A stretch of DNA of 64,000 bases from Micromonospora sp. HM5-17 (GTDB taxonomy: Bacteria; Actinomycetota; Actinomycetes; Mycobacteriales; Micromonosporaceae). Made by a program: the position numbers and the translations under genes. The notes under the pieces are model-generated. The model was given only the letters and a program-made list of their open reading frames with translations. It searched no databases and was not told where the DNA came from. Each line of letters starts with the position of its first letter. Within the stretch, counting starts at the first letter, position 1. Location of the stretch: positions 310,001-374,000 of the forward strand of contig NZ_RJWA01000004.1 in assembly GCF_003762835.1 (NCBI RefSeq), in the 5' to 3' direction. This document shows positions 7,669 through 26,287 of the stretch, piece after piece.

Positions 7669-10600
7669 GTGCCGAGCGCAACCAAGGATGAGCTGCGAAT
7701 CGGGGCGTTGGTCGCGGTGCGCGGTCAACGGTGGGTAGTCAGCGACATCCAGCCCGGTGAGCATAACAACCTGGTCAGCCTGCAGTCCGTCGAGGACGGT
7801 CGCTACGGCCACACCCTCGACGTCATCTGGGAGGTCGAGGCCGGTCGGCAGGTGCTGCCGAGTGGCTCGCTGCCGCAGGTGACCGAGGGCGGGTTCGACC
7901 CGCCGCAGCGGCTGGCCGCCTTCCTCGACGCGGTGCGCTGGTCGGCGGTCACCTCGGCCGACGTGAAGACGCTCCAGGCACCGTTCCGGTCGGGCGTGGC
8001 GATCGAGGACTACCAGTTGGAACCCGTCGCCCGCGCGGTCGACGCGCCCCGGGTCAACCTGCTGCTCGCCGACGACGTCGGCCTCGGCAAGACGATCGAG
8101 GCCGGCCTGGTCGCCCAGGAGCTGCTGCTCCGGCACCGTGCCCGACGGATCATGATCGTCTGCCCGGCGGGCCTGACCATCAAGTGGCGCGACGAGATGG
8201 CCGAGAAGTTCGGGCTGGACTTCACCGTCATCGACACCGAGCGGTGCGCGATCGTCCGGCGTACCCACGGCTCGGCGGCGAACCCGTTCCGGGTCTATCC
8301 ACTGTGTATCGTCAGCCTTCCCTGGCTGCGCGGACAGAAGGCGCAGCGCCTGCTCGACGAGGTGCTGCCGCCGGACGGGCCGGGCATCCAGCGCGAGTTC
8401 GACCTGCTGATCCTGGACGAGGCGCACCACGTCGCCCCGGCCGCGCCGAAGCAGGTCTACGCGGTCGACTCCCAGCAGACCAAGCTGATCCGGCGGCTGG
8501 CCCGACACTTCACCCACCGGCTGTTCCTCTCGGCGACCCCGCACAACGGCTACCCCGAGTCGTTCACCGCCCTGCTGGAGACCCTCGACAACCAGCGATT
8601 CCTCCGGGGCGTCCAGCCCGACGAGGCCGCGGTGAAGGACATCCTCGTCCGTCGGCTCAAGCGCGACGTCGTGGACGAGTCCGGCCGACCGAAGTTCCCG
8701 CAACGGCGCGCGATTGCCATGCCGGTGAGCTACCCGGAGAGCGAGCGGGAAATCCACGGCCTGCTCAAGCAGTTCGCCGCGCTGCGCCGCAAGCGGCTCA
8801 CCACCCAGCGGGGGCGCAAGGCCACCGACCTGGTGACGCTGCTGCTCAAGAAGCGGCTCTTCTCCAGCCCGGCCGCCTTCGCGCACACCGTAGCGGTCTA
8901 CCTGGAGACGCTGCGCAGCCGCAGCACCCCGGCCACCCCGCCAGCCGGCGACGACGTACCGGATTGGCTGGCGGACTTCTTCGACGACGTCGCGACGTAC
9001 GACGACGAGCAGCTCGCCGAGGCCGAGGACGACGCGCTCGGCCGGACCCGGCCGATGCAGCCGGACGCGACGGACGACGAGGTCACGCTGCTGGAACGGA
9101 TGGAGCAGTGGGCGCTGGCCCACGAGGCGCAGCCGGATGCCAAGGCCACCGAGCTGATCAACTACCTGACGGCGGTCTGCAAGCCGGACGGCCGGCACTG
9201 GACGAACGAGCGGGTCGTGGTCTTCACCGAATACCGCGACACCCAGCTCTGGCTGGCCAACCTGCTGCGGCAGCACGGCCTCGGCGGCGACGGCCTGGAG
9301 CTGCTGCACGGCGCCACCCCGCAGGACGAGCGAGAGCAGATCCGGCTCGCCTTCCAGGCCGACCCGACCGAACACCCGGTGCGGATCCTGCTCGCCACCG
9401 ATGCGGCCAGCGAGGGGATCGACCTCCAGGACCACTGCCATCGGCTGGTGAACTACGACATCCCGTTCAACCCCAACAAGCTGGAGCAGCGGATCGGCCG
9501 GATCGACCGGTACGGCCAGACCGTCACCCCGGAGGTGCGGCACTTCGTCGGCACCGGCTGGGGGCACGCCGTCGACTCGTACGAGGCGGACCTGGAGTTC
9601 CTGTCCCGGGTCGCCACCAAGGTCGCCCGGATGGAGGCCGACCTCGGCTCGGTCAACGCCGTCCTCTCCGACGCCGTGCAGCGCCGGATGCTCGGCGAGC
9701 AGGTCGACGTCGACGCCGCCACCGAAAAGGCGCCGGCCGCCGCCCTGCCGACCGAGTCGAACGTCCGCGAGCAGGTGGTCCGGCTCCGCGGCACCATCGA
9801 CGACACCGTGCGGGAGCTGGGCATCACCCCGGACGCGGTCAAGCGGGTCGTCGACACCGCGCTGGAGCTGGCCCGCCAGCAGCCGCTGCGCCGGCGCGTC
9901 GACGACAAGATCCTCAGCGACGGCCTCTACGACGTACCGCCGCTGACCGGGTCGTGGCAGCGGGCGACGGTCGGCCTCACCGAGAAGCTGCACCGCGAGG
10001 GCGAACCGCCGCGGCAGCTCCCGATCACCTTCGACCCGGCGGCGGCGAAGGACAACGACGGGCACGTCGTGCTGGCCCACCTCAACCACCCGCTGGTCGC
10101 GATGTCGACCCGGCTGCTCCGGGCCGCCGTCTCCAACCCGGAGATCGGGCTGCACCGGGTCACCGCGGTCGTCTCGAACGACCCGGCGTTGGAGGACGTG
10201 CTGGTCGGGGCGTACTCCCGGTTCGTGCTGGTCGGCGCCGACGGCGTACGCCTGCACGAGGAGGTCCTCTACGCCGGCGGCTGGGCGCCGGAGCAGGGGC
10301 GGTTCCGCCGGCTGGAGAACCTCGGCACCCTCCGGGCGATCCTCGACCGGGCGCTCACCAGCGGCATCCCGGCCTCCGGGCCGGTGCAGGCCCGGCTCGC
10401 CGCCCGCTGGCCCCGGATCGCCGACGGCCTGCTCGCCGCGATCGACTGGCGCACCGCCACCCGCCGCGAGTCGCTGGAGCGCAAGCTGGCGCAACGCCAG
10501 GAGGCCGAACAGCGGCGGATCGTCGACAACTTCGCGCAGTTCGCCGCCACGCTGCGGCGCAAGCTCGACGAGGGCGACGAACAGGACGCCCTGATCAGCC

Positions 10601-10797
10601 GGATCGAGGCGCGCAGCAAGGACGAACTTGAGCAGTACCGCAGGGACCGCAGGTCGTGGGAGGAACGGGTGAAGGGACTGGACGCCGAGCGGGAGCGTGA
10701 ACTGGAGGCGGTGGCCGAGCGCTACCGCGATCCGCAGTCGCACCGCTTCCCGGTCGCCGTGGTGTTCGTCGTGCCGCAGCGGGAGGCGACCCGATGA
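7669..10797 (+). CDS. drmD: DISARM SNF2-family helicase DrmD
   Basis: Class 1 DISARM helicase component, 1042 residues. Motifs in order: Walker A ADDVGLGKTIEAGL (near 8070), DEAH box LLILDEAHHVAP (near 8406), SATPHNG (near 8530), and the helicase C block with TDAASEGIDLQ and QRIGRIDRYGQ (near 9400-9515). A long helical C-terminus rich in charged residues follows. The chosen GTG at 7669 has a GAGGGGAG site; the frame also allows GTG 7624. The stop overlaps drmMI as ATGA. DrmD is the class-defining gene of class 1 DISARM, which restricts phage together with DrmMI, DrmA, DrmB and DrmC. Confidence 0.9.
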   Translation: MPSATKDELRIGALVAVRGQRWVVSDIQPGEHNNLVSLQSVEDGRYGHTLDVIWEVEAGRQVLPSGSLPQVTEGGFDPPQRLAAFLDAVRWSAVTSADVKTLQAPFRSGVAIEDYQLEPVARAVDAPRVNLLLADDVGLGKTIEAGLVAQELLLRHRARRIMIVCPAGLTIKWRDEMAEKFGLDFTVIDTERCAIVRRTHGSAANPFRVYPLCIVSLPWLRGQKAQRLLDEVLPPDGPGIQREFDLLILDEAHHVAPAAPKQVYAVDSQQTKLIRRLARHFTHRLFLSATPHNGYPESFTALLETLDNQRFLRGVQPDEAAVKDILVRRLKRDVVDESGRPKFPQRRAIAMPVSYPESEREIHGLLKQFAALRRKRLTTQRGRKATDLVTLLLKKRLFSSPAAFAHTVAVYLETLRSRSTPATPPAGDDVPDWLADFFDDVATYDDEQLAEAEDDALGRTRPMQPDATDDEVTLLERMEQWALAHEAQPDAKATELINYLTAVCKPDGRHWTNERVVVFTEYRDTQLWLANLLRQHGLGGDGLELLHGATPQDEREQIRLAFQADPTEHPVRILLATDAASEGIDLQDHCHRLVNYDIPFNPNKLEQRIGRIDRYGQTVTPEVRHFVGTGWGHAVDSYEADLEFLSRVATKVARMEADLGSVNAVLSDAVQRRMLGEQVDVDAATEKAPAAALPTESNVREQVVRLRGTIDDTVRELGITPDAVKRVVDTALELARQQPLRRRVDDKILSDGLYDVPPLTGSWQRATVGLTEKLHREGEPPRQLPITFDPAAAKDNDGHVVLAHLNHPLVAMSTRLLRAAVSNPEIGLHRVTAVVSNDPALEDVLVGAYSRFVLVGADGVRLHEEVLYAGGWAPEQGRFRRLENLGTLRAILDRALTSGIPASGPVQARLAARWPRIADGLLAAIDWRTATRRESLERKLAQRQEAEQRRIVDNFAQFAATLRRKLDEGDEQDALISRIEARSKDELEQYRRDRRSWEERVKGLDAERERELEAVAERYRDPQSHRFPVAVVFVVPQREATR

Positions 10798-25517: not shown

Positions 25518-26287
25518 GCTGGTACCCGGCGTTCCAGGCGGCGGCCGAGGCCGCCGCCGAACGGCTCGGCCCCGAACATCTGCGGGCACTCGCCGACCGG
25601 CTCGGCGGCGGCTGGCCCGAGGAGGCGGTCCGGCACGCCGTGCCGGTGCCGGAGTTTGCCGAGGTGGCCGGGCCGGTGCTGGCCGCGCGGCGGGCCGACG
25701 GCGTACCCGCAGGGGAAGCCGCCGCCTACCTGCGCGGCCTCGCCGCCGGGCACGCCCAGCGGTCGGCCGCCGTCCGGGTCGAGTCGGTGTGGAGCGGCCC
25801 GAGCACCCATCCGGTGCCGGTTCGCGCCACCGCCCAGGTGCTGGTCGATCTGGTCGGTGAGGCCGTCCGCGAGCTGCTGTTGATGACGTACTCGGCGAAG
25901 CCGTATCCGCCGCTGCTGACCGCGTTGGCGGCGGCGGTCGAGCGGGGCGTCACGGTCACCGTCGTGGTGGAGACGTTGGCCGGCGCGGGGAGCGCACTGG
26001 GCGGGACAGAGCCAGCCGCGGCCTTCGCCGCCGTCCCGGGAATCCGGCTCTGGCACTGGCCGGTGGCGCAGCGGCCCGAGCCGGGCGCGAAGATGCACGC
26101 CAAGATCGCGGTGGCGGATCGGCGGACGCTGCTGGTCTCCAGCGCGAACCTCACCCAGTCCGGGGCCGCGAGGAACGTCGAGGCCGGGCTGCTGGTCCGG
26201 GGCGGTAGCGCGCCGCGCCGGGCGGCCGAGCACGTCGCCGAGTTGACGGCGAGAGGCGTACTGGCCCCGCTGCGGATCGGACGGTAG
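25514..26287 (+). CDS. drmC: DISARM PLD-like protein DrmC
   Basis: 257 residues, phospholipase D/nuclease superfamily. One HKD motif is visible: H195, K197 and D202 in KMHAKIAVAD, followed by VSSANLTQSG. A single HKD per chain implies that dimerisation is needed for catalysis. DrmC is dispensable for protection in the characterised class 2 system of Bacillus (established). The ATG overlaps the drmB stop. It closes the DISARM operon; the methylase gene follows only 10 bases later, so transcription may continue. Confidence 0.9.
   Translation: MSWYPAFQAAAEAAAERLGPEHLRALADRLGGGWPEEAVRHAVPVPEFAEVAGPVLAARRADGVPAGEAAAYLRGLAAGHAQRSAAVRVESVWSGPSTHPVPVRATAQVLVDLVGEAVRELLLMTYSAKPYPPLLTALAAAVERGVTVTVVVETLAGAGSALGGTEPAAAFAAVPGIRLWHWPVAQRPEPGAKMHAKIAVADRRTLLVSSANLTQSGAARNVEAGLLVRGGSAPRRAAEHVAELTARGVLAPLRIGR

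What the first reader, a model, noticed from the sequence alone, without database searches (positions are those of the whole stretch)
7669..26287. Class 1 DISARM split by a 5-kb block of other defence-type genes
drmD-drmMI and drmA-drmB-drmC are intact and each group has stop/start overlaps, but between drmMI and drmA lie an exonuclease fusion, DUF262, HipA and an ATPase stub, all on the same strand. Canonical class 1 loci run drmD-drmMI-drmA-drmB-drmC. Either the cargo is a passenger using the operon as an insertion site, or it is an extended DISARM variant.
Basis: partly seen in the sequence, partly recalled or inferred. Interest (0 to 1): 0.75.

Follow-up and report, generated by a model that had tools for sequence, protein, structure and literature searches.

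The report
DISARM defence operon with cargo slot
A bacterial antivirus operon (class 1 DISARM) carries unrelated defence-type genes at one junction, between its methylase and helicase genes, and many other bacteria load that same junction with different genes, so it behaves as an exchangeable slot.

Summary
A complete class 1 DISARM (drmD 7669-10797, drmMI 10794-14867, drmA 19795-23640, drmB 23640-25517, drmC 25514-26287) is split by 4,927 bp of same-strand genes: a PDC-S48 DEDDh exonuclease, a DUF262 gene, a HipA kinase and a 62-codon ATPase fragment. I ran the proposed check on two sets of loci. Gaps of at least 400 bp occur at drmMI-drmA in 33 of 74 and 33 of 57 loci (one of the latter an artefact). 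Elsewhere: drmD-drmMI 0/74 and 3/75, drmA-drmB 0/71 and 0/48, drmB-drmC 1/63 and 0/38. On a DrmA tree of 118 loci, loaded versus empty changes at least 21 times, 17 on starred branches. The cargo is modular. DUF262-HipA is a free-standing pair (29 of 29 other loci examined). The fragment is the tail of a HEC-01A-type ATPase that is intact after drmMI elsewhere. The exonuclease sits alone in one relative's slot. So this is a recurrent cargo slot rather than an extended DISARM. Embedding of defences in other defences is already described; this locus is a new member of that kind. Side findings: reversed DrmMI specificity cassettes with a recombinase in four slots, and a methylase-kinase extension after drmC.

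The parts
7669..10797 (+). drmD, SNF2-like helicase
   Evidence: PADLOC DrmD PDLC02621 1405 bits, Pfam Helicase_C and SNF2-rel_dom
10794..14867 (+). drmMI, MmeI-like N6-adenine methyltransferase. From residue 781 on (the part that holds the target recognition domain) it has GC3 0.65 against 0.94 for the rest
   Evidence: PADLOC DrmMI 1786 bits, Pfam Eco57I, MmeI_Mtase, MmeI_TRD; GC3
14868..19794 (+). the cargo slot: 4,927 bp between the drmMI stop and the drmA start
14905..16524 (+). cargo 1: PDC-S48 DEDDh 3'-5' exonuclease, motifs DLET, HNLDF, HSALGD present; GC3 0.93, like the core
   Evidence: PADLOC PDC-S48 799 bits, Pfam RNase_T, motifs and GC3; 80% DNA identity with the single-gene slot of L071 over 1,540 nt across the drmMI junction
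16657..18318 (+). cargo 2a: DUF262/GmrSD_N protein with RLFDS and DGQQR motifs but no DHIYP-like nuclease motif; GC3 0.76
   Evidence: Pfam GmrSD_N 101 bits, PADLOC PDC-M55C 201 bits and HEC-05 77 bits, best stretches partial, motifs
18305..19555 (+). cargo 2b: HipA-family Ser/Thr kinase, overlaps the DUF262 gene by 14 nt; motifs NGDAHLKN and PAYD present; GC3 0.78
   Evidence: Pfam HipA_C 155 bits, Couple_hipA; solved relatives HipT(Lp) and HipA; pairing 29 of 29
19610..19798 (+). cargo 3: 62-aa remnant of the C-terminal part of a HEC-01A-type ATPase; its stop overlaps the drmA start
   Evidence: 63-69% identity by tblastn to the tails of the ATPases in L073, L177, L234, L285; alignment; NCBIfam MAD3-type ATPase, weak, 19.2 bits
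19795..23640 (+). drmA, DISARM helicase
   Evidence: PADLOC DrmA 941 bits
23640..25517 (+). drmB, DUF1998/MZB protein
   Evidence: PADLOC DrmB 234 bits, Pfam MZB
25514..26287 (+). drmC, PLD-type nuclease
   Evidence: PADLOC DrmC 382 bits, Pfam PLDc_2
26298..28319 (+). N6-methyltransferase 10 nt after drmC; conserved downstream extension of this DISARM lineage (not slot cargo)
   Evidence: Pfam N6_Mtase, PADLOC MTase_I, 15 of 23 close loci, start
28354..29850 (+). Ser/Thr protein kinase (PD-T4-6-like) of the same downstream extension
   Evidence: Pfam Pkinase, PADLOC PD-T4-6 297 bits, 20 of 23 close loci

Best explanation
The block is embedded defence-type cargo in a recurrent acquisition slot of class 1 DISARM: the junction between the methylase gene drmMI and the effector module drmA-B-C. 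Shown: this one junction, and hardly any other, is opened by different genes in many lineages; empty relatives have drmMI and drmA adjacent; the residents here are independent modules. Inferred history: a HEC-01-type ATPase gene once sat next to drmA and decayed to a 62-codon fragment that still overlaps the drmA start; the exonuclease sits in an old junction shared with one relative; the low-GC3 DUF262-HipA pair came later. Inferred mechanism: the slot tolerates inserts because it separates the self-marking genes (drmD-drmMI) from the effector genes (drmA-B-C) inside one transcription unit, so same-strand inserts are read with DISARM and can leave drmA translation coupled to an upstream gene. 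The passengers then act as extra defence layers that do not need DISARM proteins: a 3'-5' exonuclease, and a DUF262 nucleotide-dependent sensor that lacks the GmrSD nuclease and probably controls a HipA kinase which arrests growth after infection. Probabilities: slot and passenger status 0.9; passengers active and independent of DISARM 0.6; DUF262 controlling HipA 0.5.
For: Slot specificity: gap of at least 400 bp at drmMI-drmA 33/74 against 0/74, 0/71 and 1/63 at the other junctions; second set 33/57 against 3/75, 0/48, 0/38; Fisher p below 1e-9 for each comparison, with the artefact L227 counted as empty. Named, annotated plasmids show it in other phyla: Nocardioides sp. JS614 (3 genes), Microvirga terrae (2), Oscillatoria nigro-viridis (XisI/XisH), Methylocystis (4), with empty slots in Rhodococcus ruber, Nocardia and Deinococcus. 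Turnover: 21 changes on the DrmA tree, 17 forced by starred branches. Cargo content: 186 PADLOC models matched among 138 cargo ORFs against 10 among 129 control ORFs from 20 genomes of the same searches. Recurring families: HEC-01A by model in L177, L234 and L285, by alignment in L073, decayed in L077 and the window; L285 holds just HEC-01A plus HEC-01B, flush with drmA; DUF262 also in the slots of L172 and, on the other strand, L117, and HipA in L093, at 25-31% identity. Modularity: DUF262-HipA adjacent in 29 of 29 other loci examined; the exonuclease alone in the slot of L071. GC3: core 0.92-0.95 apart from the 3' part of drmMI (0.65), exonuclease 0.93, DUF262-HipA 0.76-0.78, remnant 0.79. 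Published parallel: BrxU, a DUF262 protein encoded between brxC and pglX in a BREX locus, gives complementary protection (PMC8565348, passages read).
Against: The four-part block was seen only here; the six other genomes of the genus searched have no DrmMI match at 1e-100, so there is no strain-level filled/empty comparison. Window and L071 exonucleases are about as diverged (74%) as the DISARM proteins (DrmMI 73%; DrmA 74%) and share the junction at DNA level, which fits long co-residence with later losses as well as exchange. No target-site duplication or att-like repeat was recognised around the block and no transposase lies in it, so the insertion route is unknown. Slots hold many opposite-strand genes (88,227 of 191,151 coding bases in 33 slots) and regulators such as HTH_31/DUF5753, so not all cargo is co-transcribed or defensive. 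The low GC3 of the drmMI 3' part shows that odd composition is not confined to the cargo. The loci were chosen by DrmMI similarity and are related to each other. No expression or phage data exist.
Confidence: 0.85

Rival explanations
1. Extended DISARM: the exonuclease, DUF262 and HipA are working subunits of a DISARM variant and act on the same target DNA as DrmA-B-C.
For: All genes are on one strand with gaps of at most 133 nt; the exonuclease has core-like GC3 and diverges in step with the core; one relative (L071) has the same exonuclease in the same place.
Against: 12 of the 15 loci of the surrounding starred clade have an empty slot. The five other full-length exonuclease relatives in the family are not in a DISARM: of 20 kb around each, four gave no DrmMI match and one (L155) only a weak 30% partial match of 54.7 bits beside a DrmD-like helicase. 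The six best DUF262-HipA relatives are not beside drmMI: five of those genomes have no DrmMI match at 1e-100 and the sixth (G117) has it on another contig.
Confidence: 0.1
2. Relaxed site: the junction is simply where insertions are least harmful (between two functional modules of an operon), the residents are mostly decaying passengers and the slot has no defensive meaning.
For: Two HEC-01A-type copies at the junction are decayed (window and L077). Slots also hold regulators, NUDIX and other ordinary families. No dedicated recombination site was seen in the window.
Against: Matches to defence models are far denser than in control ORFs. Intact, tightly fitted modules occur: HEC-01A+B, PDC-M03A+B, SoFic, FRG-domain PDC-S15. 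Catalytic motifs in the window cargo are intact.
Confidence: 0.25
3. The split is an assembly or rearrangement artefact of one genome.
For: The genome is a 51-contig draft.
Against: The window lies inside a 518-kb contig; both operon halves are intact; the drmMI-exonuclease junction is shared with L071 and an ATPase remnant at drmA is found in L077 too; the same junction is open in complete plasmid records.
Confidence: 0.02

Closest known systems
Defence genes embedded in other defence systems (Payne et al. 2024 preprint, doi 10.1101/2024.01.29.577857; not readable here, known from citations in PMC12255303, PMC12988326 and PMC12629846)
   Same: Modules of one defence lie between core genes of another. 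The exonuclease matches PDC-S48, one of the PDC candidates that came from that approach, and the remnant is of the HEC-01A type.
   Different: Host system is class 1 DISARM and one junction takes nearly all inserts; I could not check whether the preprint lists DISARM slots.
BrxU in BREX of plasmid pEFER (PMC8565348)
   Same: A DUF262 protein encoded between brxC and pglX of a methylation-based defence operon; shown to give complementary protection.
   Different: BrxU has a DUF1524 nuclease with a DHIYP motif; the DUF262 protein here has no such motif and is paired with HipA.
Type I restriction loci with inserts between hsdS and hsdR, for example DarTG2 in the RptR-controlled island (PMC12255303)
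   Same: A recurrent insertion junction between the specificity and effector genes of a restriction operon.
   Different: Different operon and different cargo.
HEC-01 (Hma-embedded candidate 01)
   Same: The 62-aa remnant aligns with HEC-01A ATPases; intact HEC-01A+B occupy the slot of L285.
   Different: In the window only a fragment without ATPase motifs is left and no HEC-01B is present.
HipBA toxin-antitoxin
   Same: HipA kinase domain and catalytic motifs.
   Different: No HipB-like gene in the slot; the partner is a DUF262 gene.

Membership tests
Class 1 DISARM | drmD, drmMI, drmA, drmB, drmC all present | tested here: met
   PADLOC models for all five
Class 1 DISARM | gene order drmD-drmMI-drmA-drmB-drmC on one strand | tested here: met
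   order kept, interrupted by the slot
   4,927-bp insert; but this feature also fails in 33 of 74 and 32 of 57 other loci, so it is not a good defining feature
Embedded defence cargo | cargo lies between core genes of another defence operon | tested here: met
Embedded defence cargo | empty versions of the site exist in relatives | tested here: met
   12 of 15 loci in the surrounding starred clade are empty; L062 shows a drmMI/drmA TGATG overlap
Embedded defence cargo | cargo modules occur independently of the host system | tested here: met
Embedded defence cargo | cargo protects against phage | not testable with these tools
   needs expression and plating assays
PDC-S48 candidate | full-length match to the PDC-S48 model with DEDDh motifs | tested here: met
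   799.5 bits, residues 1-537, profile 1-510/512; motifs
Type IV restriction enzyme GmrSD/BrxU | DUF262 domain with RLFDS and DGQQR motifs | tested here: met
Type IV restriction enzyme GmrSD/BrxU | DUF1524 HNH nuclease with a DHIYP motif | tested here: not met
   no DUF1524 Pfam match, no DHIYP-like motif
HipBA toxin-antitoxin | HipA kinase domain with catalytic motifs | tested here: met
HipBA toxin-antitoxin | adjacent HipB DNA-binding antitoxin | tested here: not met
   the ORFs picked in the slot are only the exonuclease, DUF262, HipA and the remnant; no HTH match among the first three
HEC-01 | intact HEC-01A ATPase and HEC-01B partner | tested here: not met
   only an ATPase C-terminal fragment, 62 aa
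Menshen | NsnA with NsnB and NsnC | tested here: not met
   DUF262 gives only a weak NsnA match, 48.9 bits; no NsnB or NsnC match among the slot proteins scanned

The most novel reading that the evidence does not exclude
The drmMI/drmA junction is a selected, phylum-spanning loading slot that makes class 1 DISARM a modular platform: inserts are expressed with the operon and keep drmA translation coupled, and in one lineage the slot has been taken over by a serine recombinase plus a reversed spare target-recognition cassette that can invert into drmMI, so that DISARM can switch the sequence it marks as self.
Probability: 0.35. Interest if true: 0.75.

Novelty: new member of a known kind. Interest (0 to 1): 0.55.

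Why it matters
If the slot is general, the drmMI-drmA interval of any class 1 DISARM becomes a cheap place to look for new defence modules, in the way other embedded sites have been used. It yields concrete candidates: the DUF262-HipA pair, the PDC-S48 exonuclease and the single-gene slots. It also corrects the picture of class 1 DISARM as an uninterrupted five-gene operon, which affects how annotation tools call it. The reversed DrmMI cassette seen in four slots would, if active, be phase-variable self-recognition in DISARM.

Tried and rejected
Extended-DISARM reading of the slot genes: rejected as the leading explanation because near relatives have empty slots and the modules live elsewhere. 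Assembly artefact: rejected. Menshen (NsnA) for DUF262: only a 48.9-bit match and no partners. Mobile element as the vehicle: only weak, chance-like repeat families at the slot, one weak promoter-like site inside DUF262 and no convincing terminator; DUF262 relatives in 1 phage record and 28 plasmid records, none at 60% identity or more. Structure prediction was not run: no allowed set of relatives for the exonuclease was at hand. Fisher tests treat loci as independent although they are related; the tree count is the better guard.

Weak points of the counts. The ORF caller is a simple GC3-based script; in L075 the 1,040-bp gap holds no convincing ORF. L227 is a false gap (annotated genes overlap) and L230 has no annotation. 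Five partial DrmMI matches (G212:C22, G324, G341, G345, G398; ends of contigs or fragments) were not fetched in full. Of 81 drmMI loci in the first set, 7 had no drmA in order in view and were not counted. Of 79 non-duplicate loci in the second set, 22 had no measurable drmMI-drmA gap (contig ends, slots beyond the 10-kb view, or no drmA). Eleven of its 90 loci were duplicates of the first set and were dropped. For the tree I left out L188, L225 and L230, set L227 to empty, and a length filter (DrmA ORF over 800 aa) removed 11 more of the 129 candidate rows, which gives 118. The tree is a FastTree tree with some long branches. The aggregated Pfam and PADLOC scans used 138 of the 180 cargo ORFs of at least 120 aa that could be given as references; those of L097/L160, L112/L162 and L163 were left out for size, and two ORFs across the seam of joined stretches had no reference. 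The 186 PADLOC models include DrmMI and type IIG models hit by the reversed cassettes, and one protein can match many related models, so models are not proteins. The control scan used 129 of 131 ORFs; the two longest were left out. PADLOC was not run on the window's 62-aa fragment or on the L073 ATPase; their family rests on alignment.

Papers: PMC12255303, PMC12458937, PMC12629846, PMC12988326, PMC10855318, PMC8565348, PMC9142583, PMC10273834 and PMC8565338 were seen only as found passages (for PMC8565338 one entry of its reference list). The Payne 2024 preprint and the original DISARM paper (PMC5739279) are not held. In the library I found no paper on a drmMI-drmA slot, on DISARM inversion or on a DISARM kinase extension (searches; listings only, apart from the passages named); that is no proof of absence. 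The expansion of HEC is given in PMC10855318. The name Menshen for NsnA/B/C, the DEDDh motif positions, the meaning of the HipA kinase motifs and HipA's growth arrest are recalled. RLFDS, DGQQR and DHIYP are from PMC8565348.

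
Full report
What is there. The window lies inside a 518-kb contig of a 6.17-Mb draft genome. On the + strand PADLOC models give DrmD, DrmMI, DrmA, DrmB and DrmC in class 1 order. Between drmMI (stop at 14867) and drmA (start 19795) are 4,927 bp with four same-strand ORFs: a full-length PDC-S48 DEDDh exonuclease, a DUF262 protein, a HipA kinase and a 62-aa ORF whose stop overlaps the drmA start.

Is the junction special? I searched DrmMI in the family (51 of 354 genomes with a match at 1e-100) and in a sample of the class (30 of 394), fetched the surroundings of all but five partial matches and measured all four junctions. Of 81 loci with drmMI, 74 had drmA in order. Gaps of at least 400 bp: drmD-drmMI 0 of 74, drmMI-drmA 33 of 74, drmA-drmB 0 of 71, drmB-drmC 1 of 63. 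A second set came from named genomes (the best 80 of 573 confirmed stretches, 78 loci) and 12 plasmid loci, with 11 duplicates removed. It gave 3 of 75, 33 of 57, 0 of 48 and 0 of 38. One of the 33 is an artefact (L227, where the annotated genes overlap). The three drmD-drmMI gaps are on cyanobacterial plasmids. The slot is open in Actinomycetota, Cyanobacteriota and Pseudomonadota, and closed in other Actinomycetota and in the one Deinococcus plasmid seen.

Turnover. On a DrmA tree of 118 loci (56 loaded, 62 empty) the state changes at least 21 times, 17 of them forced by starred branches (FastTree). The window sits in a starred clade of 15 loci: 12 are empty, and the loaded ones are the window, L071 (exonuclease alone) and L077 (a decayed ATPase). 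The nearest rows of the window (L074) and of L071 (L072) are both empty. In the empty L062 drmMI and drmA are joined by a TGATG overlap.

What fills it. 138 cargo ORFs match 186 PADLOC models at 1e-10; 129 control ORFs from 20 genomes of the same searches match 10. Models of one family overlap, and the 186 include DrmMI models hit by reversed cassettes, so these are not protein counts. Recurrent content includes HEC-01A, PDC-M07A, PDC-M55A, GmrSD_N (4 of 138) and NsnA/NsnB, but also HTH_31 (14), DUF5753 (11), NUDIX (3) and other ordinary families. Small slots are telling: Actinomadura sp. NBRC 104425 (L285) has just HEC-01A plus HEC-01B, flush with drmA; others have SoFic on the opposite strand (L280), an FRG-domain PDC-S15 (L305), a PDC-M03A+B pair (L299), or a protein with AlbA_2/Schlafen and DUF5635 domains (L308).

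The window's residents. (1) The exonuclease: 6 of the 353 other family genomes have a match over the full length, one of them in a DISARM slot (L071) and five elsewhere. In L155 it lies beside an N6-methyltransferase and a DrmD-like helicase. Its junction with drmMI is homologous between window and L071 (80% DNA identity over 1,540 nt), and its divergence equals that of the core, so it is probably an old resident. (2) DUF262-HipA: in all 29 other loci returned for the best DUF262 matches, HipA follows on the same strand (weaker matches were not examined). This is a free-standing two-gene module. Its GC3 (0.76-0.78) differs from most of the core (0.92-0.95), which points to a later arrival. DUF262 keeps the RLFDS and DGQQR motifs described for BrxU but has no DHIYP nuclease motif; HipA keeps its kinase motifs. 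(3) The stub: it matches at 63-69% identity the tail of ATPases that lie after drmMI in L177, L285, L234 (nearly full length) and L073 (where no drmA is in view); the first three match HEC-01A models; L077 holds a second decayed copy. In L077 the damaged gene overlaps or abuts both neighbours.

How it most likely works. Shown: slot specificity, turnover, modular cargo, intact catalytic motifs. Inferred: inserts are tolerated here because the junction lies between the self-marking genes and the effector genes of one transcription unit; same-strand inserts ride on the DISARM promoter; fragments that overlap the drmA start persist because they keep drmA translation coupled. The exonuclease and the DUF262-HipA pair then act as separate layers. 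For DUF262-HipA I propose a nucleotide-dependent sensor that releases or activates a kinase that arrests growth. That last step is a guess from families (0.5).

Known or new. Embedding of defence genes in other defence systems is published ('guilt-by-embedding', cited in PMC12255303 and PMC12988326, passages read; the preprint itself is not held). BrxU in BREX is a tested parallel (PMC8565348). The locus is therefore a new member of a known kind. What I did not find in print within this library is the drmMI-drmA junction as a named slot (searches listed in Tried and rejected).

Two side results deserve their own follow-up. First, in L115, L169, L176 and L180 the slot holds a large serine recombinase and a reversed copy of the 3' part of drmMI with its target recognition domain. 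L169 has a 154-nt inverted repeat of 100% identity, L180 one of 541 nt at 95%, L176 and L115 more diverged ones at 79% and 84%. In L180 the protein identity is 96-100% through the repeat and 40-84% in the following windows. This is the anatomy of an invertible specificity cassette; inversion itself was not observed. Second, in loci with DrmMI at least 55% identical to the window's and 4.5 kb seen after drmC, a PD-T4-6-like kinase follows drmC in 20 of 23, with an N6-methyltransferase in between in 15; 0 of 12 other loci have it. The window has both (26298-28319, 28354-29850). Several Streptomyces loci have such kinases and methylases upstream of drmD instead. So an extension of this DISARM lineage exists, but outside the slot.

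Noticed in passing
Looks like an invertible, phase-variable DrmMI specificity cassette.
   Followed up: partly
26298-29850: N6-methyltransferase and PD-T4-6-like Ser/Thr kinase directly after drmC; a kinase follows drmC in 20 of 23 close DISARM loci and 0 of 12 distant ones.
   Followed up: partly
13135-14867: The part of drmMI from residue 781 on (methylase/target recognition) has GC3 0.65 against 0.94 for the rest of the gene, suggesting a swapped specificity module.
   Followed up: no
L190-L218 and window 16657-19555: DUF262-HipA is a conserved two-gene pair; 29 of 29 other loci examined. A candidate defence or growth-control module in its own right.
   Followed up: partly
L079 and L084 (G350, G069): Two drmMI genes in opposite orientation on the same contig around one DISARM locus, the second at 52-56% identity to the window's.
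   Followed up: no
L224 (Pseudanabaena galeata plasmid): The drmA-drmB-drmC module is inverted relative to drmD-drmMI, with a BrnT/BrnA pair between drmB and drmC.
   Followed up: no
slots of 11 loci, e.g. L080, L097, L102, L117, L163, L178: An HTH_31/DUF5753-type regulator with a small ~62-aa partner sits in the slot, often on the opposite strand.
   Followed up: no
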